Shown here: positions 4,725 to 24,127 of the stretch, in pieces
Layout: the number at the start of each line of letters is the position of its first letter
How positions within the stretch are numbered: the first letter of the stretch is position 1
Source: Fluviicola sp.
GTDB lineage: Bacteria > Bacteroidota > Bacteroidia > Flavobacteriales_D > Crocinitomicaceae
Assembly: GCA_002734085.1 (NCBI GenBank)
Contig: NVXV01000021.1
Span: 9,258-54,267 of the forward strand
Reading direction: 5' to 3'
DNA: 45,010 nucleotides
Notes under the pieces: generated by a model
Seen by the model: only the letters and a program-made list of their open reading frames with translations
Databases searched by the model: none
What the model was told of the DNA's origin: nothing
Position numbers and translations under genes: made by a program

Positions 4725-5429
4725 ATGAAGCTACTACTGATTACATTTTCCATTTATTTTTTGTCTATTACTGCTAGTGCTCAAACCTGGTTCGAAGTGG
4801 GGCTTAAAGGTGGGCCAGCAACTACTTTTTTAATGAACAAGAATTTTTTAAATGATACTCAGTTTAATCCTAAGTTGACACCGACTTATTTCTATGGGGC
4901 GAAGATTGGGATTAATTTTGGCGAGCAAAATGGAATTGCTATTCACGCTGGGGGAACAAAAGTTCAGCAGAAATTTATTAACGAATATCCCAATGCACCA
5001 TTTGATGAACGAAAATTCGCTTCGAACTTAGTTGAAATCGGTGTGTTATATCATAGAACGAGCAATTCAGGCTATTTTGAAGTTGGTCCAAGAATTAGCT
5101 TAGTTCAGAGCGGTGAATTAATTGACGATGGAGGAGCAAGACAAGATATAAGTGATGAATTAATAGGAACCTATTATGGTATGGATTTAGGATTTGGCTC
5201 GTATGTGATTGGTGGTGATCATTTATCATTGATGATGGGACTTCGTTTTTCTTATGGTATCACTCCCATTGATCTAGACGAAAGACCAATTGCTCCCATT
5301 CAAGCTCAATATGGAGACTCAAGAAGTGTTAATGTATTCAGTGCTATGCTTTGTATAGAACTCAATTATTCACTAGGTTATTTGGTGAGATCCACTTGTG
5401 GAAGAAGAACTTCCTGGATATCTTTTTAA
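4725..5429 (+). CDS. Outer-membrane beta-barrel protein (PorT-like fold)
   Basis: 234 residues from ATG 4725. It has a signal peptide (MKLLLITFSIYFLSITASAQ), then alternating hydrophobic strands with Gly and aromatic residues such as 'FEVGLKGGPATTF', 'FYGAKIGINFG' and 'YGMDLGFGSYVIGG'. This is typical of the 8-strand outer-membrane barrels common in Bacteroidota. No catalytic motif is visible. It has its own promoter and is separate from the T9SS unit upstream; the next gene is convergent. PorT itself is of this size, but no diagnostic PorT motif is recognised, so only the fold is called. Confidence 0.75.
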   Translation: MKLLLITFSIYFLSITASAQTWFEVGLKGGPATTFLMNKNFLNDTQFNPKLTPTYFYGAKIGINFGEQNGIAIHAGGTKVQQKFINEYPNAPFDERKFASNLVEIGVLYHRTSNSGYFEVGPRISLVQSGELIDDGGARQDISDELIGTYYGMDLGFGSYVIGGDHLSLMMGLRFSYGITPIDLDERPIAPIQAQYGDSRSVNVFSAMLCIELNYSLGYLVRSTCGRRTSWISF

Positions 5430-5455
5430 AAATGAAAAGAGATATTTCTTTCTGG

Positions 5456-6274
5456 CTATGTAGTAATAAATGGGAATTGAGGGCCTGATGAAAATACCTG
5501 AGCATCAACAGTCAATACAGGTAGCCCATGCTTGTTAGACATCAAGTGCTGAACAAATTTCGGAGAAAACATACTGAGTGTTTTGAGGTAGTACGTTGCC
5601 GAAATCATGCTTACGCCTTCGTTTTTACAAAGATCAATAAACTCATTTATAAAATCGTCTCTTTCAAGATGCTTAATAGAAGCAGTAACATTCTGACTTT
5701 CAAGGTATTTTGTAGCAACTTTTAAATTGATTTGAACCCTTTTTTTAAACTCTGGATCGGTATGTTTACCTGCAACCAAAATCAATTCGGAATTCATGTT
5801 ATGCGCCAATGATGCCGCTGCCTTTACCACTTGAATACTGTCTTTATCAAGATCTATCGTCATGGCGATTTTTCTTATTGGAGTATATACGGTGTCTTCC
5901 TGGACGGTAATAAATGGAACCTTGCTGTTTGAAATAACATCGATTGCTTTACTTCCAAGTAATGAGTCAAGGAATGATTCCTCATGAATCCCCATTACAA
6001 CAAAACTGGCATCAACATATTCTGCATAACTTCCAACATGATCTTTGACTTTACCAGTAATCACTTTGGTCTTCACAACACCTTCAAATCTACTTAGCTC
6101 TTTCTCTACAATTCTTTTTAATTTATTTTTGGCTTCAGTTTCAGTCATGTCGTTTAATACATGAACTAACACTAACTCATCATCTTCATTTCTAGTTAAG
6201 TCTTTAGCATAATGAAGTGCATTTGTAGTTGACTCAGTAAAGTCTATCGGAATCACAAGTTTAAGTATACTCAT
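5456..6274 (-). CDS. Universal stress protein with two Usp domains
   Basis: 272 residues in two UspA-like halves (about 1-145 and 150-272). The first starts 'LKLVIPIDFTESTTNALHYA', with the usual Asp near the N-terminus and a helix after it, and has 'VVMGIHEESFLDSLLGSKA', close to the Gly-rich nucleotide-binding motif. The second half starts 'IRKIAMTIDLDKDSIQVVKAA' and lacks a clear glycine motif, so nucleotide binding is likely only in the first half. Cytosolic; stress or energy-state adaptation is the family role. It is a single gene, convergent with the barrel gene upstream, and no TAnnTTTG element was found near its start. Confidence 0.88.
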   Translation of the reverse strand: MSILKLVIPIDFTESTTNALHYAKDLTRNEDDELVLVHVLNDMTETEAKNKLKRIVEKELSRFEGVVKTKVITGKVKDHVGSYAEYVDASFVVMGIHEESFLDSLLGSKAIDVISNSKVPFITVQEDTVYTPIRKIAMTIDLDKDSIQVVKAAASLAHNMNSELILVAGKHTDPEFKKRVQINLKVATKYLESQNVTASIKHLERDDFINEFIDLCKNEGVSMISATYYLKTLSMFSPKFVQHLMSNKHGLPVLTVDAQVFSSGPQFPFITT

Positions 6275-11394: not shown

Positions 11395-11673
11395 ATGAAT
11401 ATAAAAATACCTGCAGAGATACAAGAAGAAATTGCTGGAAGGGTTAAAAAGCTTCGTAAAAAGCAACAACTCACACAAGCAGAACTAGCGCAAAAATCGG
11501 GGGTTAGTTTGGCTAGCTTAAAACGTTTTGAGCAAAAAGGAAAAATAGCGTTCGGTTCTCTTCTGAAAATTGCTTATGTTTTAAATGCATTGGAAGGTTT
11601 TGAAGAGCTTTTTAGAACTCCAAAAGACCTCCCTAAATCCCTGGATGAAATCATCAAAAAGAAACAAAAATGA
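11395..11673 (+). CDS. hipB: HipB-like XRE antitoxin / autorepressor
   Basis: 92 residues with a single XRE-type helix-turn-helix at ~13-70: 'EIAGRVKKLRKKQQLTQAELAQKSGVSLASLKRFEQKGKIAFGSLLKIAYVL'. The short Lys-rich tail ends KSLDEIIKKKQK. It should bind DNA at the repeats directly upstream and, with HipA, form the repressor complex that also holds the kinase inactive. Its last codons overlap the hipA start (ATGA, 4 bp), a sign of coupled translation. The pair is bracketed by copies of a dispersed repeat, which suggests acquisition as a unit. Confidence 0.88.
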   Translation: MNIKIPAEIQEEIAGRVKKLRKKQQLTQAELAQKSGVSLASLKRFEQKGKIAFGSLLKIAYVLNALEGFEELFRTPKDLPKSLDEIIKKKQK

Positions 11674-12902
11674 AGTTAAACACTACAAAACTCATTCAGG
11701 TTGGTTTTCATCACTTTGAGGAAGATGTACCTTTGGGTCGATTACTGTTGCACGAAGGACAAGTCCTTTTTGAATATGACGCTGCTTTTTTAAAAAAGAA
11801 TTTAAATGTTTCTCCCTTTCATTTACCTTTAAAAACAGGCGTTCAAATTGGAAAAGCAGATTTGTTTGATGGACTTCCTGGTGTGTTTAATGATTCTTTG
11901 CCTGATGGATGGGGAAAGCTCCTTTTAGATAGAAGCTTGTTAGCAAAAGGTATTCCTCCTCAGCAATTAAATCCGTTGGACCGTTTGGCTTTTGTGGGTA
12001 AATCTGGAATGGGTGCATTGACATATAAACCGGAACTAGACAAGAAAAATGAAAACGAAATATTGGATTTAGATCGACTCGCGCATGAATCGGCCGTTAT
12101 TCTAAAAGGTGAAACTTCCGAAATATTGCACCAATTAGTAGCTATGGGAGGTAGCTCTGCCGGAGCTCGGCCTAAAGTATTGGTTGGCTACCATCCCAAA
12201 CAAAATCAAATCATAAGCGGACAACAACAAATCCCTCCCGAGTATGAGCATTGGTTAGTGAAATTTCCCTCCTCACTCGATTTACCTGATATTGCTTTGA
12301 TTGAACTGGCGTATGCAAAAATGGCAAAAGCGGCTGGAATAGAAATGAGTGCCAGTACAGTTTTACAAGGTGCATCAGGGGAAAATTATTTTGCTACTAA
12401 ACGATTCGACAGGCTTAAAAATAAGCGTATTCATGTGCATACGGCTTGTGGGCTGCTAAATGCCGATCATCGCTACCCTAGTTTGGATTATGAAAATTTA
12501 ATGCGGGCTACATTGAGTTTAAGCAAAGACATGCGTGAAGTTGAAAAAGTTTTTCGACTGGCTGTTTTCAATGTCTTTGCACACAATAGAGATGATCATA
12601 GCAAAAATTTTTCATTTATCATGGATGCAAAGGGAAATTGGAAATTCGCTCCTGCCTATGATCTTACTTTTTCTTATGGTCCGGGAGGAGAACATAGTTC
12701 AATGGTAATGGGTGAAGGTAGAAATCCCGGAACGGTTCACCTTTTGAAGTTGGCGGAAAAATTTCAAATGAACAACGCTCAACAGATCATAGATGAAGTA
12801 AAAGAGGCTGTTCACCAATGGCCGAAAATAGCACAATCCTTAAACGTAGGAAATGAAAGTTTGACAACAATTCAAAAGCAAATTGACTTACAATTAAAGT
12901 AA
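11670..12902 (+). CDS. hipA: HipA-family serine/threonine kinase toxin
   Basis: 410 residues, full length. The N-terminal HipA domain runs to ~120 ('LPGVFNDSLPDGWGKLLLDR'). The Gly-rich activation segment 'MGGSSAGARPKV' is at ~159-170. The catalytic loop 'HNRDDHSKNFSF' is at 305-316 and the metal-binding 'DLTFS' at 331-335, so all key kinase residues are kept. HipA of E. coli phosphorylates glutamyl-tRNA synthetase and induces persistence; other HipA proteins have other aminoacyl-tRNA synthetase or unknown targets, so the substrate here is open. It overlaps hipB by 4 bp. The frame is intact. Confidence 0.92.
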   Translation: MKLNTTKLIQVGFHHFEEDVPLGRLLLHEGQVLFEYDAAFLKKNLNVSPFHLPLKTGVQIGKADLFDGLPGVFNDSLPDGWGKLLLDRSLLAKGIPPQQLNPLDRLAFVGKSGMGALTYKPELDKKNENEILDLDRLAHESAVILKGETSEILHQLVAMGGSSAGARPKVLVGYHPKQNQIISGQQQIPPEYEHWLVKFPSSLDLPDIALIELAYAKMAKAAGIEMSASTVLQGASGENYFATKRFDRLKNKRIHVHTACGLLNADHRYPSLDYENLMRATLSLSKDMREVEKVFRLAVFNVFAHNRDDHSKNFSFIMDAKGNWKFAPAYDLTFSYGPGGEHSSMVMGEGRNPGTVHLLKLAEKFQMNNAQQIIDEVKEAVHQWPKIAQSLNVGNESLTTIQKQIDLQLK

Positions 12903-13093: not shown

Positions 13094-13158
13094 ATCGATT
13101 CAATGGAAAAGGAATTGAAATAGAAACGTATGTTTTTTATATTAATCGAAAACAATTA

Positions 13159-13319
13159 TTTACAAACGATTATTGTCGGATAACTTTTTTCTTTTGGTTG
13201 GTTAGCGTTTTGTGGGAGTATGAGGGTTTTTAGAGGTTTGGAGGGATGTTGTAGTTGGGTTTTTTGTATATATTTATAGTGTGGATAAACGTAATAGTGC
13301 GTTTATATGCTTGTTGTGG
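13159..13319 (+). promoter_or_regulatory. Conserved ~160-nt leader, copy A (before an unknown gene)
   Basis: It has four parts in order. First, a 25-bp block at 13159-13183 (TTTACAAACGATTATTGTCG..). About 100 nt on, TTTTTTGTATATATTTAT. Then a stem-loop ATAAAC-10 nt-GTTTAT (13285-13306). Finally GTTGTGG (13313-13319), 14 nt before the ATG. Copy B at 17494-17665 has the same parts at nearly the same spacing. TATATTTA inside it is one base off the -7 consensus. It may be a promoter plus structured 5' UTR, or part of a cassette recombination site. Confidence 0.6.
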
Positions 13320-13333
13320 TTAATTAGAGAAAC

Positions 13334-14011
13334 ATGAACTTAATACCATTTAAAGACATAAATGATCAAGATGAATTTTGGGGCGGAGCAAGATTTATCA
13401 AGAAAAAAACGGGATTAAGACGAGTAGTTCCTGAACAGGATTATTTTGAATACATGCTCGTAAATGATAATAGTTCAAGTGAGCGGATGATTTGTGCTCA
13501 TATTGACAAGTTTGAAGCAGGCTCTGTTATTTCCCATGTAAAAAAGACTACGCCTGAATCTAATCGACATACTGTAACCGCTAAGGAATTTAAGAGAAGT
13601 AACATTCTTGACGAAGAAATTGATTTATGGTATTACAATCACGTTGAATATGATAGGTATTGGAGCCAAGATTTAAAATCAGTGATTAAAAGACTTGACA
13701 ATATTTCATTCCATGATTTAGAAGTTGATAGTTTGAATATCAACTTTTATTATTCCTTTTTCTCAATCGACTTTGAACTATATAATGAGAAGTCTGAAGA
13801 CTATGACAAGTGGACTATTGAATTTAACGGCTTAAGTGAGTTGAACTCTGACCAATTACCATTGAATGCTGATTCAGACGTGGAGATTACAAGCTTTGAT
13901 TACGAGTTGAATGAATTTTTTGAAGGGAAAATGACTTTCTTACTTGGTTCAGGACAACCCTCATTTGATTTAATATTTAAATGTGAAAAAATTAAACTAA
14001 TAAAAAACTAA
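13334..14011 (+). CDS. Hypothetical protein, accessory (cassette-like)
   Basis: 225 residues that I do not recognise. There is no signal peptide and no membrane helix. It is acidic and rich in aromatic residues. 'DEFWGGARFIKKKTGLRRVVPEQDYFEYMLV' is near the N-terminus, and the C-terminal half is beta-like ('LNINFYYSFFSIDFELYNEKS', 'MTFLLGSGQPSFDLIFKCEKIKLIK'). This suggests a small cytosolic mixed alpha/beta protein. It sits alone between the conserved leader (GTTGTGG just upstream) and a hairpin repeat beginning CCACAAC at its stop codon, the reverse complement of that heptamer. Codon use and context suggest horizontal acquisition. An immunity-like role is possible but nothing shows it. Confidence 0.75.
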   Translation: MNLIPFKDINDQDEFWGGARFIKKKTGLRRVVPEQDYFEYMLVNDNSSSERMICAHIDKFEAGSVISHVKKTTPESNRHTVTAKEFKRSNILDEEIDLWYYNHVEYDRYWSQDLKSVIKRLDNISFHDLEVDSLNINFYYSFFSIDFELYNEKSEDYDKWTIEFNGLSELNSDQLPLNADSDVEITSFDYELNEFFEGKMTFLLGSGQPSFDLIFKCEKIKLIKN

Positions 14012-14071
14012 CCACAACAACACCTATACGCAATGCCCTTCGGGACACTGCGCATAGCCAGAACGTTATAT
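14012..14071. repeat. Hairpin repeat S1 (attC-like), copy 1
   Basis: Starts CCACAAC directly after the stop codon. Arms CTATACGC (14024-14031) and GCGCATAG (14050-14057) pair with one mismatch, around TTCGGG. GTTATAT (14065-14071) follows, 8 bp before the next start. Its first 47 bp match 41 of 47 positions of the repeat at 16205. The order of parts resembles integron attC sites (R''-L''-L'-R'), though the outer boxes pair poorly. Confidence 0.6.
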
Positions 14072-14078
14072 TCAATCT

Positions 14079-15425
14079 ATGAAGTGCTCTCTATTTTTCC
14101 TCATGTTCGTCTGTGCTTGTCAAGTTGCACATTCTCAGAAAATATCTAGAAAAGAGTTTCAGGAAGAAATAGAGATAGCCGTGTTGGTTCTAACCGATGT
14201 CCATGCCAATCCTTTTGCCTTTCAAACTGAAGAAGGGTTAATCCAATTAAAGGATTCTATTCTTCATGAACATAACTCCAAAGATTCAATATCAGTTTTA
14301 ACTGCTTTCCAATGCTATGCAAATCTTGTTAGTTCGATAAAATGTGCTCATTCAGGTGCATATAGAACGAAAGAATTGGATTCTACAATTCACCCGTTTC
14401 CTGTCGAAATAAAAATCATTGAAGAAAAAGGGTTTATAGCACGGAACTATCCTGTTTTGAATCTTTTTACTGGAGATCAAATTGTTTCGATAAACAATAT
14501 AGCCTGGAAGTCAATTTTTGTAAAAGGAAAGAACCTACATTCTTCTGATGGTGATTCTCCATTAAATGGTGCATTATTTGAAAGAAGATATAATCTTGAC
14601 ATTCCAATTATATTGGGAAATCCCGTCGACTTCAAGGCTGTCACATTACATGATGGAGTTTTAGTTGAAAGCGATTTCGACGCTTCTAGAATGGCAGCTT
14701 CACCGCGTATATGTCAAAGTTTTAATTTTTGCATTGTAGGTGCAGATAAGAATATTGGGTTGATTAAAGTCATCAACTTTCCGAGTGATGAAAAATCCAT
14801 TGCCGATTTCGAAAAGTTCTGTATGAAAACCCTAAGTAAGTTGGAACGCAAGAAGATCAAGGATGTTATCATTGATATTAGGGATAATGGCGGAGGAGAT
14901 AGAATCGATTTGCTTCTTAGAAATTTCACCTCCACTTCTTTTAAATTAATGAGCTCTACTATTGACACTTCCAATTTGACAAAATATTCAAGGGAATTAG
15001 TCTTTCACGGAACGACATATGAAAATGTGTTAAAAACCCCTGCTAAATCACAACTTGCAAGGCAAGTAGATTTTCAGGGAGATTTATATTTAGACATCAA
15101 TATATATGTTTTAGTTAATGGAAGAACTGCTTCTGCCGCGAGTCATTTTGCATCACTTGTTAAGGAGCATGATTTAGGGAAGATTGCAGGAACTGAAACA
15201 GGGGGTAGAGCTGCTGGTTGCAACGGTAATCTATATTGCTCGTATTTCCTTTCAAATTCTGGAATCGAATTACATTTCCCCTTAATGGTCAACACATACG
15301 CGGTAGACCAAGTAGATAATCCTAATCATGGAGTTTTTCCTGATATAATCATCAAAGAAGAGTTATCTGATGATTTAGAATTAACTAAATTAATTGAAAT
15401 AATAAATAAACATAACATGCACTAA
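14079..15425 (+). CDS. S41 family (C-terminal processing-type) serine peptidase, exported
   Basis: 448 residues. A signal peptide (LFFLMFVCACQVAHSQ) sends it to the periplasm or surface; the Cys in it could alternatively mark a lipoprotein. A helical N-domain (~25-130) is followed by a PDZ-like stretch, and the tail-specific protease core starts at ~230 with 'IGLIKVINFPSDEKS' and 'DVIIDIRDNGGGD'. The nucleophile is expected at Ser352 in 'NGRTASAASHFASLV', followed by 'GTETGGRAAG'. These motifs are intact. Substrate unknown. Its last codons run into a large inverted repeat (15410-15489), and the gene stands alone between hairpin repeats, as in cassette arrays. Confidence 0.85.
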   Translation: MKCSLFFLMFVCACQVAHSQKISRKEFQEEIEIAVLVLTDVHANPFAFQTEEGLIQLKDSILHEHNSKDSISVLTAFQCYANLVSSIKCAHSGAYRTKELDSTIHPFPVEIKIIEEKGFIARNYPVLNLFTGDQIVSINNIAWKSIFVKGKNLHSSDGDSPLNGALFERRYNLDIPIILGNPVDFKAVTLHDGVLVESDFDASRMAASPRICQSFNFCIVGADKNIGLIKVINFPSDEKSIADFEKFCMKTLSKLERKKIKDVIIDIRDNGGGDRIDLLLRNFTSTSFKLMSSTIDTSNLTKYSRELVFHGTTYENVLKTPAKSQLARQVDFQGDLYLDINIYVLVNGRTASAASHFASLVKEHDLGKIAGTETGGRAAGCNGNLYCSYFLSNSGIELHFPLMVNTYAVDQVDNPNHGVFPDIIIKEELSDDLELTKLIEIINKHNMH

Positions 15426-15489
15426 GAAAAATGGCGCAATAATTCACTCGAGAATAAGCGCCACATGGCTTAGTGCAGAACCGTTGTGT
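15410..15489. repeat. attC-like inverted repeat at the 3' end of the S41 gene
   Basis: Outer boxes are ACATAAC (15410-15416) and GTTGTGT (15483-15489). They match integron R''/R' in place and nearly in sequence, pairing with one G-T wobble. Inner arms TGCACTAAG (15418-15426) and CTTAGTGCA (15469-15477) are perfect, as are GGCGC (15433-15437) and GCGCC (15458-15462). The spacer is asymmetric: 1 nt on the left, 5 nt on the right. The first 16 bases are the end of the protease coding region. Confidence 0.65.
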
Positions 15490-15509
15490 AGCATTTAAAA
15501 TAAACGAAT

Positions 15510-16196
15510 ATGTATAAAAAGCAATTATTGATTCTAACCTTTTTATTGGGTTCATTTTTAGCATTCTCACAAAATGTAGAAACTGAAAACCCAGATTATA
15601 AAAAAATTGAAAAAGAAATAGCAAAGAAAAAATCCGAATTATTTTATCCAAAACTGATGAAAAAATATATAAATTCTGATTCTACAATGACTCTAAAAGA
15701 AAAAAGATATTTGTATTATGGCTATTCATTTCAAGATGCATATTCTCCGTATGGACATTCTGATTTTAGTGATACTTTAAGAGAAGTTTTGCAAAAAGAA
15801 CAACATACAGATGAGGAGTTAAATAGAATTATTGAATTGTCAGACTCAATTTTAGTTGATAACCCATTTGATTTAAGGGTAATCAATTACCAACTATACG
15901 CACTTGATAAACTTGAAAAAAAGATAGAGTTTGATAAGAAAATCAATCAAATGAGAATAGTAGTTGATGCTTTATTAAGTTCAGGTGATGGGTTAAAAAA
16001 GAAGACCGCATTTTATGTAATTTATACTTCACACGAATATGATTTGCTAAATATTTTGGGTTATGAGTTTGGAGGGGAACAGAGTTTAATTGATCATTTC
16101 GATTATCTGAAAGTGGCAAAGAATTCACAAAATATTAAAGGTTTTTATTTCGATATTAGTCCTTGTCTGAACTCTATGAACGAAATGTTTAAATAA
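15510..16196 (+). CDS. DUF4919-like exported protein
   Basis: 228 residues with a clear signal peptide (KKQLLILTFLLGSFLAFSQ), then a charged helical segment. The run 'LKEKRYLYYGYSFQDAYSPYGHSD' at ~60-85 is what I associate with DUF4919, a Bacteroidota family of unknown function. The remainder is helical, TPR-like ('ELSDSILVDNPFDLRVINYQLYALDKL'), and ends 'GFYFDISPCLNSMNEMFK'. Probably periplasmic. It is a lone gene between the inverted repeat at 15410 and the S2 repeat at 16205. The family name is from memory of the LYYGY..Q..YSPY motif and should be treated as moderate. Confidence 0.7.
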   Translation: MYKKQLLILTFLLGSFLAFSQNVETENPDYKKIEKEIAKKKSELFYPKLMKKYINSDSTMTLKEKRYLYYGYSFQDAYSPYGHSDFSDTLREVLQKEQHTDEELNRIIELSDSILVDNPFDLRVINYQLYALDKLEKKIEFDKKINQMRIVVDALLSSGDGLKKKTAFYVIYTSHEYDLLNILGYEFGGEQSLIDHFDYLKVAKNSQNIKGFYFDISPCLNSMNEMFK

Positions 16197-16204
16197 AAAA
16201 AACG

Positions 16205-16265
16205 CCACAACAAGTCCTATACGCAATGCTATTCAGGACACAGCGCATAGCTAAACACGTAACGT
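16205..16265. repeat. Hairpin repeat S2 (attC-like), copy 2
   Basis: Second copy of the repeat at 14012. CCACAAC (16205-16211), arms CTATACGC (16217-16224) and GCGCATAG (16243-16250), then GTAACGT (16259-16265) where S1 has GTTATAT. It begins 8 bp after the stop of the DUF4919-like gene and ends 10 bp before the next start codon. Confidence 0.6.
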
Positions 16266-16275
16266 AAATTAAATC

Positions 16276-16806
16276 TTGGAAACACCATTAGAAAAAATAT
16301 TAGCGAAATCGTACAAGCAGGAAATGATGGCTTATATAGCATCACATCCAAATGCGTTTGAAGAATTAATTGAACTCGCCATAGCCAACAAACAACCTTA
16401 TTCTTGGAGGGCCGCTTGGTTGTTGTGGAGTTGTATGGAAAACAATGACAAACGAATAAAAAAACAGATACCTACCATCTTAGAAAATCTAGATGCATTT
16501 AAAGATGGACATCAACGTAATTTAATTAACATCCTTCAAAAGATGCAGATTCCTGAAGAATATGAAGGACGGCTATTTGATAGTTGTGTGAATATATGGG
16601 AGGACACAGATAAACAATCTTCTGTGAGATTCAAAGCGTTTGAATGCATTGTAGAAATCACTAAAAGGTATCCGGAACTGTATAATGAAGTCGCTACACT
16701 TACCGAAGAACGATATATAGCACCGCTTTCGGAGGGAATTAAAAGATCAATCTTTAAAAAGATAAAGATTCTAGACCAAATGAATGCGGCAGACAACAAC
16801 GGGTAA
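16276..16806 (+). CDS. Hypothetical helical-repeat (HEAT-like) protein
   Basis: 176 residues from TTG 16276. The first in-frame ATG is 16 codons in, but the leading 'LEKILAKSYKQEMMAYIASHP' looks like part of the fold, so TTG is preferred. The whole protein is amphipathic helices in pairs: 'FEELIELAIANKQPYSWRAAWLLWSCM', 'RIKKQIPTILENLDAFKDGHQRNLINIL' and 'SSVRFKAFECIVEITKRYPELYNEV'. This matches HEAT/ARM-type solenoids. I recall similar short proteins in Bacteroidota with no known function. No signal peptide. It stands between the S2 repeat and the YdeI-like gene (38 bp downstream). Confidence 0.7.
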   Translation: METPLEKILAKSYKQEMMAYIASHPNAFEELIELAIANKQPYSWRAAWLLWSCMENNDKRIKKQIPTILENLDAFKDGHQRNLINILQKMQIPEEYEGRLFDSCVNIWEDTDKQSSVRFKAFECIVEITKRYPELYNEVATLTEERYIAPLSEGIKRSIFKKIKILDQMNAADNNG

Positions 16807-16844
16807 AGGACGTAAGAATTTTACCAGCTAACAGATTAGAGAAA

Positions 16845-17420
16845 ATGAACGACATCGAAGAATATTGCCCCAACAACAGAGAAGACTGGAGAAATTGGCT
16901 CGAATTGAACCATAAGCGGAAAGATGCCGTTTGGCTCATTTTTTACAAGAAAAAATCACCGGATCATAACCTCAGTTGGAGTGAATCCGTGGACGAAGCC
17001 CTCTGCTTTGGTTGGATTGACAGTACAAAACGAGCAATAGACGAAGAGAAATACATCCAATATTTTAGCAAACGCAACGCAAAAAGTAATTGGTCAAAGA
17101 TCAATAAGGATAAAGTGAAAACCTTGATAGACCAAGGACTGATGACAGAAGAAGGGTACAAAAGCATTGAGATAGCCAAAGAAAATGGTTCTTGGACAAT
17201 GCTCGATGAGGTGGAAGCACTTATCATTCCAGAAGATTTAAAACGAGAATTGGATGCAAACAAAGGGGCAATGGAATTCTATGACACGCTAAGTAAATCT
17301 ATTAAAAAGGGATTACTGTATTGGGTCATCTCTGCGAAACGAAAGGAAACAAGACAAAAAAGAATTTTAGAAATTGTCGAAAATGCAAGTAGAAATTTGA
17401 AACCAAAACAGTTTAGGTAG
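16845..17420 (+). CDS. YdeI/OmpD-associated family protein
   Basis: 191 residues. It begins 'CPNNREDWRNWLELNHKRKDAVWLIFYKKKS' and has 'LSWSESVDEALCFGWIDSTKRAIDEEKYIQYFSKRNAKSNWSKINKDKV', the signature of the YdeI family. The C-terminal 'KKGLLYWVISAKRKETRQKRILEIVENASRNLKP' is the family's typical tail. E. coli YdeI is linked to OmpD/polymyxin resistance and called a bacteriocin-protection protein, but its biochemistry is unclear. Cytosolic, no signal peptide. It follows the HEAT-like gene by 38 bp with a short inverted repeat GGTAAA/TTTTACC between them, so cotranscription is possible. Confidence 0.88.
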   Translation: MNDIEEYCPNNREDWRNWLELNHKRKDAVWLIFYKKKSPDHNLSWSESVDEALCFGWIDSTKRAIDEEKYIQYFSKRNAKSNWSKINKDKVKTLIDQGLMTEEGYKSIEIAKENGSWTMLDEVEALIIPEDLKRELDANKGAMEFYDTLSKSIKKGLLYWVISAKRKETRQKRILEIVENASRNLKPKQFR

Positions 17421-17493
17421 AAAAGAGGTGTAATATTGTGATGGGTGAGTTGAGGATTGTAAGGGGATTTGGTAGGTTAATTGAATTCAGTCG

Positions 17494-17665
17494 TTTGCAA
17501 ATGGTTGTTGTCAGATAAAGTTTTTGGCTCGGAGGGCTTGCACTTTATGGAAAAACTTGATTTAGTGATGTTTGTTAGGGATTTGTAATTTGTTTTTTTG
17601 TTTATATTTATGGGTGTATAAACTTGGTAATGTGTTTATTGACTTTTTCAGTATAGACATTATGG
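17494..17665 (+). promoter_or_regulatory. Conserved ~170-nt leader, copy B (before the amidohydrolase)
   Basis: Same order as copy A at 13159. A 25-bp block at 17494-17518 matches A at 20 of 25 positions, and all five differences are transitions. Then, 99 nt after the block (101 in A), comes the stem ATAAAC-10 nt-GTTTAT (17618-17639), preceded by TTTTTTGTTTATATTTAT. ATTATGG (17659-17665) stands where A has GTTGTGG. It fills the 266-bp gap between the YdeI-like gene and the amidohydrolase gene. Confidence 0.6.
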
Positions 17666-17686
17666 ATAAACTAAAAAAAAGATAAC

Positions 17687-19099
17687 ATGAAAATGCTCGA
17701 TGACCAATTGAACCTATTCAAGCAAATAGCTACTGAAACTATTAGTAATAATGCTGATTCTAGATTAAGTCCTGTTGTGAAAAATATTATAAAAAAAAAC
17801 AACTTTGTCTATGATGCTCATGCCCATATTTTTGATGGAAAGTGTATTGATGTCAAATATTTTGTGACACGATTTATTGGTTCGGTTCCTGAGAAATTTC
17901 TTAGACGAGTATGGAGAGTATTAACAAGACGGGAGAGGGAGATTTTCAAATTAAATGAAATGAGTCGTGAGCAATTGCTAGATATATTATATGATGATAA
18001 ACTGAAAATAAGATATGATGAAGATTTTGATAGGTATCTGTCTGAGTTGGAAACAACTGTTGAAACAGAATTAAAACAGTTTAATGAAGAAAAAGAACTG
18101 GCGTCAATCTTAGACTTTGATTGGAAAAACTTTTTAGGAAGACTGCTCTCCATAATCAAAATCTTAAAGACATCCAGAATGAGTAAAGTATATAAAGAGT
18201 TTCATAAGAAGTATTCAGTCCAAAATATAGAAGGAGGTGATTTATTAACTGTTGTACTAGGGATGGACCTTAATATGAGTTGGGGTAAAGCTATTCAAGA
18301 GTCATATGATGAACAGTTCTATGAATTATTAGATTTATCTTACAGGAAACCTATTATACCTTTTTTACCTCTCGATCCTAGGAGAGCAGAGGAGAAAAAT
18401 GATGAGGATGGTAATGAATATCAGTTTAATCAATTATACGATAAATTCTTAGAGGCTTTCGATAAAAACAGTGATAGAAATTATTTTGGTGTAAAAATAT
18501 ACCCTGCCTTAGGATACTTACCTTCTGATAGTCGATTACAGCCGCTATTTGAAATATGTGCAGCCAAAGGTATTCCAGTAGTTACGCATTGTGGGGGAGA
18601 GGTCGTTTCTTCATTTAAATGGGGGTTCGATGTTGATCGATTCGGAGAAATAGTTCGGTGTGAGGGTAACTCAAGAAAGGAACGCGCTCGCTGGTTAAAC
18701 GAACCTTTAAATTGGAAACCAGTTCTTGAAAAACACGGAGGCTTAAAACTTAATCTTGGACATTTCGGTGGCGCAGATGCTTGGGAAAGTTCAAAAGGTG
18801 AAACAGCACATAGAAAGCAAGAGATATTTGACCTGATGAGAGATCACTCTGTTTATACAGACTTTTCCTTTAATCTAGAGGATGAAGGTGCAACTGATAA
18901 TTTTGTTCAAAAACTTCAGAATGAAGATGAAGAATCTGAATTAATGAAAACGAGATGTATGTTCGGAACAGATTTCTGGGTTGTGTTACCAATGTCGAAC
19001 CTATTAGAAGACACAAGACAATTCATGATGAAAGTTGGTAATGATAAAAAGAAAATGTTGAAAGATAATGTTATAGAGTTCCTAGGCATAAACTCCTGA
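17687..19099 (+). CDS. Amidohydrolase-superfamily TIM-barrel metal-dependent hydrolase
   Basis: 470 residues, no signal peptide. The metal-site motifs appear in order: 'YDAHAHIFD' with His45 and His47; 'FGVKIYPALGY' with a Lys that may be the bridging ligand; 'PVVTHCGG'; 'LNLGHFGG'; and a late 'RCMFGTDFWV' Asp. This layout fits the amidohydrolase_2/TatD-like group. An unusual charged helical insertion (~75-175, 'RRVWRVLTRREREIFKLNEMSREQL') separates the first motif from the barrel core. Substrate unknown. The next gene, a metallophosphoesterase, starts 29 bp later, so the two are probably an operon. It has the conserved leader upstream. Confidence 0.85.
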   Translation: MKMLDDQLNLFKQIATETISNNADSRLSPVVKNIIKKNNFVYDAHAHIFDGKCIDVKYFVTRFIGSVPEKFLRRVWRVLTRREREIFKLNEMSREQLLDILYDDKLKIRYDEDFDRYLSELETTVETELKQFNEEKELASILDFDWKNFLGRLLSIIKILKTSRMSKVYKEFHKKYSVQNIEGGDLLTVVLGMDLNMSWGKAIQESYDEQFYELLDLSYRKPIIPFLPLDPRRAEEKNDEDGNEYQFNQLYDKFLEAFDKNSDRNYFGVKIYPALGYLPSDSRLQPLFEICAAKGIPVVTHCGGEVVSSFKWGFDVDRFGEIVRCEGNSRKERARWLNEPLNWKPVLEKHGGLKLNLGHFGGADAWESSKGETAHRKQEIFDLMRDHSVYTDFSFNLEDEGATDNFVQKLQNEDEESELMKTRCMFGTDFWVVLPMSNLLEDTRQFMMKVGNDKKKMLKDNVIEFLGINS

Positions 19100-19128
19100 T
19101 TTAAGATTTTTAAATTAAAACAATAAGA

Positions 19129-19953
19129 ATGAAAATTATTCACATTAGTGACTTGCAGTACCAAGCTTCTGACCGTAAAGATAGAATCGATAAATTCATT
19201 AAGAAAATAATTAACCACTACTCTGAAACAAATGAAAAGCCATTGATCATCTACACAGGAGACCTTGTGGAAGACGCGTTTAAAAGCGAAATGACAGCAC
19301 ACAGAACTCAATTGCAAGAGTTTGTTGATGCAGGCTTTGAAATGCTCATATGCCCCGGGAATCATGATCAAAAAAGGAATGGCTTTAATGCTCGTTTCTA
19401 CGATACTAATCTAGCCATGTTTAGCGACATATTCAGTGATCTTCTACCACAAGGAAAGCATTACTACAGTGAAGATGATAATAACCTTTTGAGCTGGCCA
19501 CTTGTGCACCAATATGGGTCTTATTTTTTTATTGGACTCGATTCAAATGAAGGAATGCACAATAATTACTCTGCATGTGGTAAAATTGAGCGTAAACAAC
19601 GTTCTGCATTGAAAAAAGCTCTTAACGACATTAAGAAGGCTGACAGCAACGCAATTATTGTTGTTTACCTGCATCACGAGCCATTTGAATACACCATCAG
19701 CACAGGTGTGCCTGGACCATGGGATTATCACTTTATGAAACTCAAAAAACGTGAAAAACTGCTAAGAATTCTCAAAGGTCGCGTCAATGTGCTTCTTTTT
19801 GGACACAACCACAATTTCGACCGTAGAGTATCACGTGAGCAAAAATGGGGAATTGACTTAATACTGAGGAATGCTGGTGCTATCATGAACGTTTCTGACA
19901 ATAAATTTGCCGAGATTGATCTTGCAAATGATTTTACTCTCAAACACCTTTAA
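19129..19953 (+). CDS. Calcineurin-like metallophosphoesterase
   Basis: 274 residues. Dimetal motifs in order: 'HISDLQY' (DxQ instead of the usual DxH), 'YTGDLVED', 'CPGNHDQ', 'YLHHEPF', and 'LLFGHNHNFDRR'. All but the first are canonical; Gln at that place is known in some subfamilies. It should hydrolyse a phosphodiester or phosphomonoester in the cytosol, as there is no signal peptide. The N-terminal half resembles cyclic-nucleotide-phosphodiesterase-like members, but the substrate cannot be read. It lies 29 bp behind the amidohydrolase and is presumably cotranscribed. Base composition at the 5' half is slightly more GC-rich than its neighbour. Confidence 0.88.
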   Translation: MKIIHISDLQYQASDRKDRIDKFIKKIINHYSETNEKPLIIYTGDLVEDAFKSEMTAHRTQLQEFVDAGFEMLICPGNHDQKRNGFNARFYDTNLAMFSDIFSDLLPQGKHYYSEDDNNLLSWPLVHQYGSYFFIGLDSNEGMHNNYSACGKIERKQRSALKKALNDIKKADSNAIIVVYLHHEPFEYTISTGVPGPWDYHFMKLKKREKLLRILKGRVNVLLFGHNHNFDRRVSREQKWGIDLILRNAGAIMNVSDNKFAEIDLANDFTLKHL

Positions 19954-20090
19954 GCAACGAAATAAAGTAAGTCATCTTATTTTTGCTAGCTTTTTTATAG
20001 ATTCTATAGCAATTTATCAAAAAGCCCTAGAAAAAAATTATCAGAATTATAAAGTAAAAATTTGATAATCGAAAAGCTTCATACAAAAAA

Positions 20091-20143
20091 TGGTGTAATT
20101 TATACACTACGGGATACGCACCTTACACGTTGCGTTTACACCA
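20091..20143. repeat. Compound inverted repeat before the lipocalin-like gene
   Basis: TGGTGTAA (20091-20098) is perfectly inverted at 20136-20143. ACGCA (20116-20120) and TGCGT (20131-20135) pair inside it. The left arm carries a 17-nt bulge. It ends 17 bp before the ATG at 20161 and fits the pattern of hairpin repeats between the accessory genes. 19954-20090 shows nothing else clear. Confidence 0.55.
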
Positions 20144-20160
20144 CTTTAAAAACAAGTTAA

Positions 20161-20574
20161 ATGAACATTTCAGGACAATGGATTGGTACTCTAACTTATG
20201 GGCAAGAGTATGGTGATTTAGCAGGAAAAACTCTTAGGTTCGAGATGGAACTATCACAAATTGAAAATAAATTTTCCGGACTTTCGAAAGATCTTGATGG
20301 TGTTGGAGTTAATCCTGATCCAGCAGAAATAAAAGGAAAATTAACCGAAAATGAAATCAACTTTGTAAAGCAATATAGATCACTGCACCTTGCAGACAAG
20401 AACAACAGCATCGATAAATCACGAAAAGGACCAAAAATTTTCTATTCAGGTAGGTACGATGAAGCTTTGAAAGAATTTTCTGGACTCTGGAAGATGTTTG
20501 TACAAAGAAAGTTCTTTGGTTTAATTCCAATAAATAGGCATACTTCGGGAACCTGGGAGATGAAAAGAAAATAA
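20161..20574 (+). CDS. Lipocalin-like beta-barrel protein, hypothetical
   Basis: 137 residues, no signal peptide. The start 'MNISGQWIGTLTYGQEYGDLAGKTLRFEMELSQIENKFSGLSKDLDGVG' followed by 'AEIKGKLTENEINFVKQY' and the closing 'SGTWEMKRK' show strand-turn repeats (G.W.G...YG, F.G, I.G). I associate these with small lipocalin/fatty-acid-binding-like barrels of Bacteroidota. Cytosolic. Function unknown; a ligand-binding barrel is the most that can be inferred. It is a lone gene behind a hairpin repeat, possibly the last member of the cassette-like strip, and is convergent with the helicase fragment that follows. Confidence 0.7.
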   Translation: MNISGQWIGTLTYGQEYGDLAGKTLRFEMELSQIENKFSGLSKDLDGVGVNPDPAEIKGKLTENEINFVKQYRSLHLADKNNSIDKSRKGPKIFYSGRYDEALKEFSGLWKMFVQRKFFGLIPINRHTSGTWEMKRK

Positions 20575-20625
20575 AAACGAACAATTTCCATTCTCACCTA
20601 TCAAAAATTCGATAATAAGTACCCC

Positions 20626-20970
20626 CTAATATATCAACTCAAAAACACTATGATAACACCCACACCCCTCCGTATAATCAATAAACGCCTTATAAAAACC
20701 ATCCTTCCCCAACTTAGTAGAATCTCCAATCACAATTAACTTTAGCTTAGCTCTGGTCATTGCTACGTTCATTCTGCGGTAATCTTTAAGGAATCCGATA
20801 TTTCCATCGGGGTTACTTCTCACCAAAGAAAGAATAACCACATCTGCTTCTTGTCCTTGGAAAGAATCGGCGGTAATTACACTTAAGTCCTCCAACCGAA
20901 GTACCTACCATTCGGAAGATTTGGCGAAATCCACTTGAAAGTTGCACGGGATAAAAGGAGAAGATAACCT
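20626..20970 (-). pseudogene. Truncated second copy of the SF1 helicase C-terminus
   Basis: Read on the minus strand, 20895-20626 encodes 89 residues almost identical to the end of the helicase at 22307-24127: 'DSFQGQEADVVILSLVRSNPDG', 'YRRMNVAMTRAK', 'YHSVFEL'. Homology also continues upstream to ~20970: 'VIFSPFIPCNFQVDFAKSSEW' then a TAG stop, against 'VVFISPYAGQVELAK' in the intact gene. It is therefore a relic, not a small gene. DNA similarity extends a little past the stop codon. The relic abuts the left inverted repeat of the ATPase unit. Confidence 0.85.
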
Positions 20971-20979
20971 TGCAAAATG

Positions 20980-21002
20980 AACTTAGACTTTCAAATTACA
21001 AG
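20980..21002. repeat. Left 23-bp inverted repeat of the ATPase unit
   Basis: AACTTAGACTTTCAAATTAC.. is the inverse of 22229-22251 with one mismatch. It overlaps the last codons of the ATPase gene (stop at 20996-20998). Confidence 0.75.
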
Positions 21003-22192
21003 GTTGCAACCTTGGCTTTAATCAACTCAATAAACTCGATTAATCCGATTACTTCAACGTCGTTTGGTAAGGGGTAACGATCCTGACTGGAATTAATGAC
21101 CCATTTATGTGTTGCTTGAATGTCCTTGCAGGCTTCATAAAAACCTCTACTTAATTTCGGAGCCGAGGCACGTTTTACTTCTATAGCCCAGACTTCTTGG
21201 TTCGGGGTATGTAATACCAAATCAATTTCAACTTGTGTTGCTGTTCTAAAATAACTGGATTCCCATCGGTCATCTAAAATGCTGAGTATATTTTCTATAA
21301 CAAATCCTTCCCAACTTGCACCCATTGAGGGATACGTAAATAGGGCATCCATACTTGGTAATCTCAGTAAACTATGTAAAATCCCTGTGTCTCGAATGTA
21401 AATTTTAGGAGATTTTATCAAGCGTTTTTTTATGTTTCCTGACCAGGGTTGTAATTGACGGACCATATAAAAGTCGGTTAATACATCTAAGTGGCTTTTA
21501 ATTGTCGTATGACTTAGCTCCAAACTCCTACCAATTTCACTTGAATTTACTTGATTTCCATTGTAGTGCGCCAACATTTTCCAAAATCGTTTGAGTTGTG
21601 TAGGGGCGATTCCAACCCCCATAGAAGGAAGGTCTCTTTCCATATATGTTGATATGAAATCACTTCTCCAGTTCCAACTCTCTTCGTTATCATCTGCTAG
21701 GTAGCTATCAGGGAAACCACCATTTAGCCATAGTTTGTCAAGGTCAAACTTGTTTCCTTCATGTACAAAAAGTTCAGAAGTAGTAAAAGGGGTTAACTCC
21801 AAATATCTAATTCGACCCGCTAAGGTTTCAGAAGAATGCTGCAATAAATCTCGTGAGGCAGAACCTAAAAGTAAAAAATGACCTGCTCGTTCTCCATTTC
21901 TTTTTCTTTCGTCAACGATTCCACGAATTACACGAAATAGGTCTGGCTTTCTTTGTACTTCGTCGATAATCAATAATTCATTTGAAAATCTTTTGAGATA
22001 CGCTTCAGGGTCGCGTAATTTGTTAAAATCAGCATCTGATTCTAAATCCAAATAGGTTGTTTTCTTCTCTAATGACTTGGAGACCTTTAGTGCAGACGTT
22101 GTTTTACCCACTTGTCTAGGACCTAATAAAGCAACTACAGGCATTGCATTCAAAGCCTTTTCTAGTTTTTTCTGAATATCTCTTTTAATCAT
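20996..22192 (-). CDS. AAA-type ATPase with DUF4143 domain
   Basis: 398 residues. Walker A 'LLGPRQVGKTTSA' is at ~22-34, Walker B 'LLIIDEVQRKPD' at ~70-82, and 'FLLLGSASRDLLQ' holds the sensor-1 region. The C-terminal half is DUF4143: 'FISTYMERDLPSMGVGIAPTQLKRFWKMLAHYNGNQVNSSEIGRSLELSHTTIKSHLDVL' (a winged-helix-like part), then a nuclease-like end 'ATQVEIDLVLHTPNQEVWAIEVKRA' whose D..(x)n..EVK resembles a PD-(D/E)XK fold. Such proteins are abundant, mobile and of unknown role. The gene lies between 23-bp inverted repeats and has its own TAnnTTTG element inside them. It separates an intact helicase gene from a broken copy of its tail. Confidence 0.88.
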   Translation of the reverse strand: MIKRDIQKKLEKALNAMPVVALLGPRQVGKTTSALKVSKSLEKKTTYLDLESDADFNKLRDPEAYLKRFSNELLIIDEVQRKPDLFRVIRGIVDERKRNGERAGHFLLLGSASRDLLQHSSETLAGRIRYLELTPFTTSELFVHEGNKFDLDKLWLNGGFPDSYLADDNEESWNWRSDFISTYMERDLPSMGVGIAPTQLKRFWKMLAHYNGNQVNSSEIGRSLELSHTTIKSHLDVLTDFYMVRQLQPWSGNIKKRLIKSPKIYIRDTGILHSLLRLPSMDALFTYPSMGASWEGFVIENILSILDDRWESSYFRTATQVEIDLVLHTPNQEVWAIEVKRASAPKLSRGFYEACKDIQATHKWVINSSQDRYPLPNDVEVIGLIEFIELIKAKVATL

Positions 22193-22306: not shown

Positions 22307-24127
22307 CTAATACATCAACTCAAAAACACTATGGTAACACCCATTCTCCTCCGTATAATCAATAAACGCCTTATAAAAACCATCTTTCCCCAGCGTAGTA
22401 GAATCTCCAATAATAATTAACTTTTGTTTGGCTCTGGTCATCGCTACGTTCATTCTGCGGTAATCTTTAAGGAACCCGATATTTCCATCGGGGTTACTTC
22501 TCACCAAAGAAAGAATGACCACATCCGCTTCTTGTCCTTGGAAGGAATCTATTGTACTTACTCTGATGTTTTCCAATTGCGTTTTGGCCAACTCCACTTG
22601 ACCTGCGTATGGTGAAATAAAAACCACTTCATCCTGGTCCGTTTTCCAGGCATCGAGAGATTTGACCACCGTATCGAGTTCATCGGGATTGAAAATACTT
22701 CCCGTTTCTTCTTTTTTCTCGTCGAAGTTGGCGCCAGCGGTATCGTAAAAGAGGAGGTGCTCCCCCGTGTTTTCTTTATTCGATTGCAAAGCGGAGTCGT
22801 AGAAATAACTCGAAGAAAAATCGGCAATTTGTGGCGGCATGCGGTATTGGAGATTTAATAAGTTGGAGGTTAAACCAGACTCAAATCCGCGTTCTAAAAT
22901 TGAAATCGACAAACCATCTCGTGCTGCTTGATCATCAATTACAGTAGGAGGGAGCTGAAAAGGATCTCCCGCCAGAATAAAACGTTCTCCTTTTTGTAGA
23001 ACAATCCACGCCATGGGTTCGAGGCATTGCGCAGCTTCATCGAGGATCACCAAATCAAAATGCGTATCGCGAATTAATGAATCGGAAAGTCCGACTGGTG
23101 TTCCAATGATTACCTCTGCATTTTCGACTGATTTTTCCAGATAATGCGTTGTCGTCTTTTTTATTTCATCTCTCAGCGCTTTGAATTCAGCAAAAAGCAA
23201 CTTGCGTTGTTCCCGTTCAGATTTTCCAAAATTTCGTTTGTACTGCTTCGCCATTTTACGGAATTCATTGGCTCTGATTTTTAGTTTTTTCAGCGGTTTC
23301 GCAAATTCGTCTTGACTCAAAATGCCTTCAGGTGTGTGTTTCCAAACATCTTCATTGACTTTTATCGTGTTCCCCAAACGCAGCACATTTATTCCGCGAT
23401 GGATAAGGCTTTTCGCAAAATGATCCACCGCAGCGTTACTCGGCGCACTGATTAGAATCTTTTTGTTGCTTTTTAATTGTTCCACAACTTCCACAAGTGT
23501 AGTCGTTTTCCCTGTACCCGGAGGACCATGTACCAAAGTGACAGGCGAATCAATCATACAATTCTCCACCGCTTGTTTCTGCGAGTCGTTGAGTGAAGCA
23601 TTGTGCCAGTTTTTTACCGGTTTTCGCTCGTTCTTTTCAGGCAATGCTTTGATGCCATGGAGATAACCAAACAGCTTTTCAAGATGTGGATCTTCGCCTT
23701 TTTCAATGGATTTCAGTACGCCATGCATTTGGTTAAACGAGCGACTGTCGGGCAATAATTTGATACCAATTCGTCCTTGATCTAGCCAATCCGGAAAGTC
23801 ATCTGCGAAAAGCGTGAGTTCCCCCTTCCCTTGCGCAATCGTTAAAAGTTGACCATTACAAAGTTCTTCTGAATTCTCGCTAAAAACAGCAATGGGCGAA
23901 CCGCCATTGAATTGCGTTTGATTGTATTCGTGCGAAAAGGAAAAATGAATGATCGGATAATCCGCATACCCGAATCTTTTGCGCGTAATTTGAATCGGAG
24001 AAATCACAACTCCTTTGTGACGTAATTCTTTTATTGAAAGAGAAGCATTAAACCATCTTTTCTCTTGCGCTTCCTGTTCTGCACGAAGTAAATTTCTAAG
24101 TGATTGTATTTTATCTTGAATGGTCAT
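22307..24127 (-). CDS. SF1B helicase, UPF1/IGHMBP2-like
   Basis: 606 residues. An N-terminal beta-rich region (~1-175) with 'VVISPIQITRKRFGYADYPIIHFS' precedes helicase motif I 'LVHGPPGTGKTTT' (198-210), Ia 'ILISAPSNAAVDHF', II 'LVILDEAAQC', III 'FILAGDPFQLPPTV', IV/V 'STIDSFQGQEADVVILSLVRSN' and VI 'RRMNVAMTRAK'. All ATPase/helicase motifs are present. Members unwind RNA or DNA 5'-to-3'; the bacterial role is not defined. Cytosolic. The gene is intact although its tail has a degraded duplicate at 20626-20970. Divergent from the antiporter, with a 56-bp palindrome between them. Confidence 0.9.
   Translation of the reverse strand: MTIQDKIQSLRNLLRAEQEAQEKRWFNASLSIKELRHKGVVISPIQITRKRFGYADYPIIHFSFSHEYNQTQFNGGSPIAVFSENSEELCNGQLLTIAQGKGELTLFADDFPDWLDQGRIGIKLLPDSRSFNQMHGVLKSIEKGEDPHLEKLFGYLHGIKALPEKNERKPVKNWHNASLNDSQKQAVENCMIDSPVTLVHGPPGTGKTTTLVEVVEQLKSNKKILISAPSNAAVDHFAKSLIHRGINVLRLGNTIKVNEDVWKHTPEGILSQDEFAKPLKKLKIRANEFRKMAKQYKRNFGKSEREQRKLLFAEFKALRDEIKKTTTHYLEKSVENAEVIIGTPVGLSDSLIRDTHFDLVILDEAAQCLEPMAWIVLQKGERFILAGDPFQLPPTVIDDQAARDGLSISILERGFESGLTSNLLNLQYRMPPQIADFSSSYFYDSALQSNKENTGEHLLFYDTAGANFDEKKEETGSIFNPDELDTVVKSLDAWKTDQDEVVFISPYAGQVELAKTQLENIRVSTIDSFQGQEADVVILSLVRSNPDGNIGFLKDYRRMNVAMTRAKQKLIIIGDSTTLGKDGFYKAFIDYTEENGCYHSVFELMY

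What the first reader, a model, noticed from the sequence alone, without database searches (positions are those of the whole stretch)
13094..20600. Cassette-like accessory strip: single genes separated by hairpin repeats, no integrase in view
Eight unrelated genes, nearly all one per unit and same strand, are separated by hairpin-forming repeats that begin at or just after stop codons and end shortly before the next start. Several repeats carry heptamers of the form CnnnAAC / GTTnnnn in the places of integron R''/R' boxes. This is the layout of a CALIN (attC cluster lacking an integron integrase). No tyrosine recombinase is encoded in the window. The layout is seen; the mechanism is inferred.
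Basis: partly seen in the sequence, partly recalled or inferred. Interest (0 to 1): 0.7.

Follow-up and report, generated by a model that had tools for sequence, protein, structure and literature searches.

The report
Integrase-less remnant of unusual Bacteroidota integron
Part of this gene strip looks like a cassette array left by an integron, a system that captures genes one at a time; related systems in the same phylum appear to use a recombinase without the domain thought essential for integrons, which bears on how integrons evolved.

Summary
The layout is real but smaller than described. Three units (13313-16265) look like gene cassettes: covariance models trained without window sequence find three attC-like sites (E 1.3e-17, 4.9e-6, 0.006). 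Cassette 1 begins at an attI-like palindrome (13286-13316) of a form seen just 3' of three recombinase genes elsewhere. Genes 4-8 lack good sites. No recombinase of the family remains in the window.

The larger finding is the cognate system. Relatives carry a tyrosine recombinase followed, on the same strand, by single genes and attC-like hairpins. It resembles IntI but lacks the roughly 41-residue IntI-specific domain and branches outside IntI. In 43 adjacent site pairs each R'' box matches its own cassette's start (5.3 of 7) rather than the next one's (2.7); 0 of 10,000 permutations reach this. A stem G.T wobble on the bottom strand is present in 23 of 23 model sites and 26 of 26 further sites from other genomes; most stems have no bulge. 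Such sites are in 36 of 40 genomes (own included).

Best reading: a decayed integron of a Bacteroidota type with a domain-less recombinase. Anatomy is shown; recombination and the role of the wobble are inferred. A published homology-independent gene insertion in Riemerella fits.

The parts
11395..12902 (+). HTH + HipA-like pair, upstream flank (not part of the array)
   Evidence: ORFs; the name HipA is recalled, no Pfam run was made on it; weak PADLOC hits
13286..13316 (+). attI-like site: palindrome TAAAC..GTTTAT then TTGTTG; inferred crossover at G13313
   Evidence: same form 6, 36 and 39 nt after the recombinase stop in L043, L112, L114; 1 in window, 0 in 100 shuffles; 1 in the 4.03-Mb own genome, but over 149 genomes 5 matches against 3 of the reversed control
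13313..14064 (+). cassette 1 (gene 13334-14011, 225 aa, no Pfam family)
   Evidence: start GTTGTGGTTAATT against reverse complement of own R'' GTTGTGGTTAGTT, 12 of 13; no Pfam hit; only the own genome of 299 in the order at E<=1e-10
14012..14071 (+). attC-like site 1
   Evidence: model R1 82.5 bits E 1.3e-17; bottom strand -11.0, z -4.0; top -7.2, z -2.1; same or near-same core in 5 of 39 other genomes
14065..15482 (+). cassette 2 (gene 14079-15425, S41 peptidase)
   Evidence: Pfam PF03572 E 1.7e-16; own-start 5 of 7
15410..15489 (+). attC-like site 2
   Evidence: model R2 20.3 bits E 0.0058; 77.5% over 89 nt to a site in L048; folds no better on the bottom (-14.4) than on the top strand (-15.1)
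15483..16258 (+). cassette 3 (gene 15510-16196, DUF4919); right end approximate
   Evidence: Pfam PF16266 E 2.7e-56; own-start 4 of 7; no match in 9 of 9 congeners at E<=1e-15
16205..16265 (+). attC-like site 3, R' box damaged (no GTT)
   Evidence: model R1 34.4 bits E 4.9e-6; fold no better than shuffles, z -0.3
16276..17420 (+). genes 4 (176 aa) and 5 (OmdA domain), no site between or after
17619..17639 (+). second attI-like palindrome without the GTT crossover box; a leader stretch 76% like 13233-13277 precedes it
17687..19953 (+). genes 6 (amidohydrolase) and 7 (metallophosphoesterase)
   Evidence: Pfam
20081..20140 (+). decayed attC candidate, near noise
   Evidence: model R1 15.2 bits E 0.2; by eye its 3' arm resembles a site in L047
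20161..20574 (+). gene 8 (137 aa), possible cassette remnant without site

Best explanation
The strip is the decayed remainder of a Bacteroidota integron: an attI-like site, three gene cassettes with attC-like sites, then genes whose sites are lost or never existed; the recombinase gene is gone. In intact relatives a tyrosine recombinase, IntI-like but without the IntI-specific domain, lies just upstream on the same strand. Proposed mechanism: the bottom strand of an attC folds into a hairpin; the recombinase cuts at G^TT in the R' box and joins it to attI or another attC, so cassettes enter and leave as circles. That each R'' is complementary to the start of its own cassette shows that units moved with a crossover in the GTT box. 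Strand choice may be set by fixed G.T wobbles (A.C mismatches on the top strand). Shown: anatomy, adjacency, own-start signature, covariation, wobble asymmetry, phylogeny. Inferred: that this recombinase does the reaction, and how strand choice works.
For: Models without window sequence find three window sites. Own-start test, 43 unique adjacent site pairs in 17 of 105 sources: 5.33 of 7 own against 2.65 next; >=6 in 30 of 43 against 2 of 43; permutation 229 against 105+-8.8, 0 of 10,000; subsets agree (18 pairs, 0 of 20,000; 15 pairs, 0 of 5,000). Sites >=13: 96 against 15 in reversed and 11 in shuffled sequence. In 44 loci with a recognised recombinase: 36 sites downstream same strand, 3 upstream same strand, 7 anywhere on the other strand. 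Chryseobacterium sp. SNU WT5 plasmid: recombinase + 6 sites, own-start 7, 6, 6, 3, 5 of 7. Structure on 23 sites: covariation 0.801 against 0.186, 97 double changes against 26.6, one pair G.T in 23 of 23; on 26 sites from 20 genomes outside the training set: 0.747 against 0.192, 111 against 32.2, G.T in 26 of 26. Strand asymmetry: bottom folds better in 52 of 56 (symmetric scanner) and 21 of 26, 2 equal. Recombinase: IntI4 (2a3v) is Foldseek rank 1; IntI4 182-246 faces 23 residues; K-to-RH gap 66-67 in 32 of 43 loci, 107-108 in three IntI.
Confidence: 0.85

Rival explanations
1. The hairpins are transcription terminators or REP-like repeats at gene ends, not recombination sites.
For: They lie at or after stop codons; site 3 has no fold signal above shuffles.
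Against: Terminators need not match the start of the same gene unit; own-start test 0 of 10,000. Similar sites lie in other genera with alignments ending near the site. Fixed, strand-specific wobbles.
Confidence: 0.03
2. A canonical, domain-bearing IntI in the cell or community moves these cassettes; the IntI-like recombinase is a bystander.
For: IntI1 can act on foreign (archaeal) attC (PMC9668308, passages). Some recombinase family members have no sites nearby.
Against: TIGR02249 over cut-off in 0 of 40 genomes while sites are in 36 of 40; positional bias 36 to 3 to 7 beside the recombinase.
Confidence: 0.08
3. Host XerCD moves the units, as it does for phage CTX.
For: CTX integration by XerCD resembles cassette recombination and its stem lacks extrahelical bases (PMC4792948, passages); the family is Xer-like.
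Against: Seven host Xer rows form their own clade (100/99) apart from the array-linked recombinases; sites lie beside the latter.
Confidence: 0.04

Closest known systems
Integron with IntI (class 1, Vibrio chromosomal integron)
   Same: attI, attC with R''/R' boxes, GTT crossover box, bottom strand favoured, single-gene cassettes on one strand, R'' matching own start
   Different: recombinase lacks the IntI-specific domain and branches outside IntI; most stems without bulge and with a fixed G.T wobble; recombinase on the same strand as the cassettes, whereas canonical intI is usually divergent (recalled)
CALIN (attC cluster without integrase)
   Same: attC-like sites, no integrase in view
   Different: an attI-like site is retained; only three sites are clear
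Archaeal integrons (PMC9668308, passages)
   Same: tandem cassettes with attC, mostly CALINs
   Different: archaeal IntI are reported to carry the IntI-specific domain
CTX phage / XerCD (PMC4792948, passages)
   Same: folded site without extrahelical bases, recombinase without the I2 domain
   Different: no encoded recombinase there; here a recombinase gene, attI-like site and arrays

Membership tests
Integron (IntI type) | IntI with the IntI-specific additional domain | tested here: not met
   window: none. Recombinases of relatives: 0 of 40 genomes over the TIGR02249 cut-off; 23 residues face IntI4 182-246
Integron (IntI type) | attC: R''/R' boxes plus bottom-strand hairpin | tested here: met
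   in the window site 3 has no fold signal and site 2 no strand preference
Integron (IntI type) | extrahelical bases in the bottom-strand stem | tested here: inconclusive
   no asymmetric bulge in the first 14 bp in 26 of 35 fully scored stems and 17 of 23, so a minority has one; the scanner disfavours early bulges and no canonical yardstick could be obtained
Integron (IntI type) | attI next to the recombinase gene | tested here: met
   one attI form 6-39 nt after the stop in L043, L112, L114 and in the window without the gene; other relatives have other leaders
Integron (IntI type) | cassette ends: R'' complementary to own start | tested here: met
   43 pairs, 0 of 10,000; in the window 7, 5 and 4 of 7, the last two not specific
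Integron (IntI type) | recombination activity of the recombinase on these sites | not testable with these tools
   needs an assay
CALIN | at least two attC within 4 kb, no integrase | tested here: met
   three sites within 2.3 kb by own covariance models, no recombinase; IntegronFinder's own model was not run
XerCD/dif-dependent element | dif-like site used by host XerCD | not tested
   no dif search was made

The most novel reading that the evidence does not exclude
Bacteroidota hold a second integron lineage in which a Xer-like recombinase without the I2 domain recombines folded attC sites that mostly carry no extrahelical bases, strand choice being written in conserved G.T wobbles. It would be either a surviving form of the pre-I2 state or an independent invention of the cassette system, and it would explain the homology-independent insertion of resistance genes seen in Riemerella. 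(Odds lowered from 0.6 to 0.55 on checking, because the absence of extrahelical bases is a majority trend and not a rule.)
Probability: 0.55. Interest if true: 0.92.

Novelty: new variant of a known kind. Interest (0 to 1): 0.85.

Why it matters
[quoted passage not shown] Bacteroidota are otherwise listed among integron phyla (PMC8618304, PMC9668308, passages). Yet sites of the kind described are in 36 of 40 genomes around this one. Escudero et al. 2016 (PMC4792948, passages) call the joint origin of the I2 domain and extrahelical bases a chicken-egg paradox; a system without the domain makes that question testable. Resistance genes in a Myroides and a Riemerella plasmid lie next to such sites, so this may be a route for resistance genes that standard tools overlook.

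Tried and rejected
Rfam at gathering threshold: nothing. RNAalifold on a mixed-length alignment gave no structure because the arms misalign; class-wise alignments worked. Plasmid search with site 1: no match. Thirteen loci with homologues of the DUF4919 gene: no sites within about 1.5 kb. A canonical integron locus (Thiodictyon, L232) as structural yardstick gave no clear canonical attC; that canonical sites carry extrahelical bases rests on papers. The first scanner rewards A.C over G.T; counts were redone with symmetric scoring. L050 (G010) has the recombinase but no clear site downstream. Dropped rows: tabulates 44 of 80 loci (36 without a regex-recognised recombinase), three of the 44 being canonical IntI; one search uses 108 rows (domains outside 250-350 aa and L055, L064, L026 left out, L156 trimmed); removes repeated start/R'' pairs. 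In one search the count 37 of 40 at E<=1e-20 also takes in ordinary Xer (4 of 14 control genomes ring), so I do not use it as a count of the family. Absence from print: in the listings (open-licence PMC only, some lists capped, no preprints) I saw no title or abstract start on a Bacteroidota integron with a domain-less integrase; most of those papers were not opened. PMC8138268 (passages) says the insertion is 'not fully conserved' in its integron-like subgroup, so related recombinases may have been seen before.

Full report
WHAT IS IN THE WINDOW. The window is G000:C6:9258-54267 of a 4.03-Mb genome in 36 contigs. Its phylum is inferred as Bacteroidota, because the recombinases of its relatives group with named Bacteroidota. 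Eight same-strand genes run from 13334 to 20574: no family (225 aa), S41 peptidase, DUF4919, no family (176 aa), OmdA domain, amidohydrolase, metallophosphoesterase, no family (137 aa). A 60-nt repeat follows genes 1 and 3. Its 35-nt core occurs in 5 of the other 39 genomes searched, identical to site 1 in G003, G012, G019 and G038 and near-identical in G010, with AAC before and, in 4 of the 5, GTT after.

INDEPENDENT COVARIANCE TEST. Model R1 (seven short sites, none from the window) finds 14012-14071 (82.5 bits, E 1.3e-17) and 16205-16265 (34.4 bits, E 4.9e-6), then a decayed candidate at 20081-20140 (15.2 bits, E 0.2) hardly above the next hit (14.3 bits). Model R2 (23 long sites, none from the window, one from elsewhere in the own genome) finds 15410-15489 (20.3 bits, E 0.0058). 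Calibration is short, so E-values are rough.

attI. The end of the leader before gene 1, TAAACGTAATAGTGCGTTTATATGCTTGTTG (13286-13316), is a palindrome followed by a crossover box. The same form lies 6, 36 and 39 nt after the recombinase stop codon in L043, L112 and L114, and the leader aligns to a stretch of G012 (76%, E 5.6e-8). The pattern is unique in the own genome, but over 149 genomes it gives 5 matches against 3 for the reversed control, so its place, not its presence, is the evidence. Cassette 1 begins at G13313; its first 13 nt match the reverse complement of its own R'' at 12 positions. A second palindrome (17619-17639) without the crossover box precedes gene 6. Cassettes 2 and 3 match their own starts at 5 and 4 of 7 positions, but match the start of cassette 1 equally well, so they are decayed or misread.

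ADJACENCY. Downstream of the recombinase on the same strand come genes separated by attC-like hairpins: L063 (G007), L054 (G001), L056 (G005), L064 (G026), L048 (G003, recombinase truncated), and in the own genome at C28 a recombinase fragment plus three sites. In 44 of 80 collection loci with a recognised recombinase there are 36 sites downstream on the same strand (up to 9 kb), 3 upstream on that strand (up to 9 kb) and 7 anywhere on the other strand. 18 of the 44 have a downstream site; of the 26 without, many are cut by the contig end, but L097, L116, L126 and L143 had 9 kb scanned. A plasmid of Chryseobacterium sp. SNU WT5 shows the whole arrangement with six sites, interrupted by an IS110 and a group II intron gene.

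MECHANISTIC SIGNATURE. If units insert as circles with a G^TT crossover, the R'' at a cassette's end must pair with the start of that same cassette and not with the next. A scanner blind to this gave 43 unique adjacent pairs in 17 of 105 sources: 5.33 of 7 positions match the own start, 2.65 the next; 30 of 43 against 2 of 43 at six or more; permuted sum 105+-8.8 against 229, 0 of 10,000. Sites at score 13 or more: 96 against 15 in reversed and 11 in shuffled sequence.

SITE STRUCTURE. On 23 long sites (16 pairs) 96.5% of cells pair against 63.5% shuffled and 35-47% slid; 97 double changes against 26.6; covariation 0.801 against 0.186; pairs with double change 13 against 10.8 (28 of 500 shuffles as high). 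One pair is G.T in 23 of 23. On 26 sites found by model R2 in 20 genomes that gave no training site, covariation is 0.747 against 0.192 and the same pair is G.T in 26 of 26; this alignment is fitted to the model and leans towards it. With a scanner treating wobbles of both strands alike, 56 confirmed sites have 92 A.C top mismatches (G.T on the bottom), 8 C.A, 11 top G.T and 40 other; the bottom strand folds better in 52 of 56, and in 21 of the 26 with 2 equal, where all 40 stem G.T pairs have G on the 5' arm. No asymmetric bulge in the first 14 bp in 26 of 35 and 17 of 23 scorable stems. Canonical sites carry extrahelical bases read by IntI's I2 domain, and their removal abolishes attC x attC recombination by IntI1 (PMC4792948, PMC2727003, passages). 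Here the domain is absent and the bases mostly so.

SPREAD. A simple pattern of the long site occurs in 20 of 395 genomes of the phylum, with no match of the reversed pattern. Model R2 finds sites in 36 of 40 genomes, or 31 of the 35 that gave no training site: 52 in G038, 41 in G007, 34 in G021, 10 in the own genome; only 84 candidates per genome were scored, and no unrelated genomes were searched. Sites are up to 96% identical between distant genomes, the alignments mostly ending near the site.

WINDOW HISTORY. Of nine left-flank stretches from congeners, seven hold the MATE gene and in five it is followed directly by the homologue of 36837-38459 (one more is cut, one has no such homologue in the next 4.8 kb); no strip gene was found in any of 16 flank stretches. 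The region is inserted and rearranged here. The DUF4919 gene has no match in 9 of 9 congeners and a match in 14 of 299 genomes of the order, own included, best 62% in another family; gene 1 matches only the own genome of 299.

LITERATURE. In Riemerella anatipestifer (Bacteroidota) an aph(3')-IVb fragment entered the chromosome by natural transformation without flanking homology, always with 27 bp before and 140 bp after the gene; the latter folds like attC and the authors call the mechanism not fully elucidated (PMC13148043, that section read). One Myroides and two Riemerella plasmids carry sites 88-89% identical to the own genome's long site; in the Myroides and the one Riemerella plasmid viewed, resistance genes lie beside them. 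This supports movement, though the recombinase was not tested there and I did not look for it in Riemerella.

VERDICT. The finding is partly confirmed in extent and right in kind. It leads to a Bacteroidota integron variant with a domain-less recombinase. The anatomical case is strong; activity and the wobble rule remain to be shown.

Noticed in passing
L189 (NZ_CP072192.1, Riemerella) and L190 (NZ_CP013691.1, Myroides odoratimimus): Resistance genes (class D beta-lactamases, MYO-1, aadS, estT, ereD) lie beside attC-like sites of this type; a stretch with the class D beta-lactamase unit of the Myroides plasmid aligns over 840 nt (80%) with a unit in the chromosomal array of G026 (L064).
   Followed up: partly
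L188 (Acinetobacter indicus p80-1-2-tetX3), 5070-5735: The gene directly before tet(X3) is a roughly 221-aa tyrosine recombinase, 45.6% identical to residues 98-345 of L063's, hinting at a Bacteroidota source of that module.
   Followed up: no
L016, L018, L063 and other recombinases, N-terminal 60-250 residues: An extra N-terminal module with a KW....W..P-like motif, present once in most and apparently repeated in L016 and L018, without Pfam match in the five scanned; it might help bind folded DNA.
   Followed up: no
G007 genome, e.g. C1:383538-390034: Twelve similar-scoring copies of a 291-300-aa tyrosine recombinase of a sister group (L177), possibly a mobile element of its own.
   Followed up: no
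L158 (Pseudoalteromonas luteoviolacea): A recombinase sister to IntI with an intermediate K-to-RH gap (89 residues), perhaps a partial IntI-specific domain.
   Followed up: no
window 20626-22192: An ATPase-like gene (20996-22192, DUF4143-like by recall) sits between the helicase gene (22307-24127) and an 89-aa ORF (20626-20895) nearly repeating the helicase's C-terminus, as if its insertion duplicated the target end.
   Followed up: no
G000:C28 (L045) and G000:C25:139850-147196 (L233): The own genome holds a second decayed array (recombinase fragment plus three sites) and, on C25, two sites about 7 kb apart of which my scanner saw one.
   Followed up: partly
L185 16287-20069; L054 11858-13174: IS110 and a group II intron maturase gene interrupt the Chryseobacterium array; an intron-type reverse transcriptase, by recall, ends the L054 array.
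   Followed up: no
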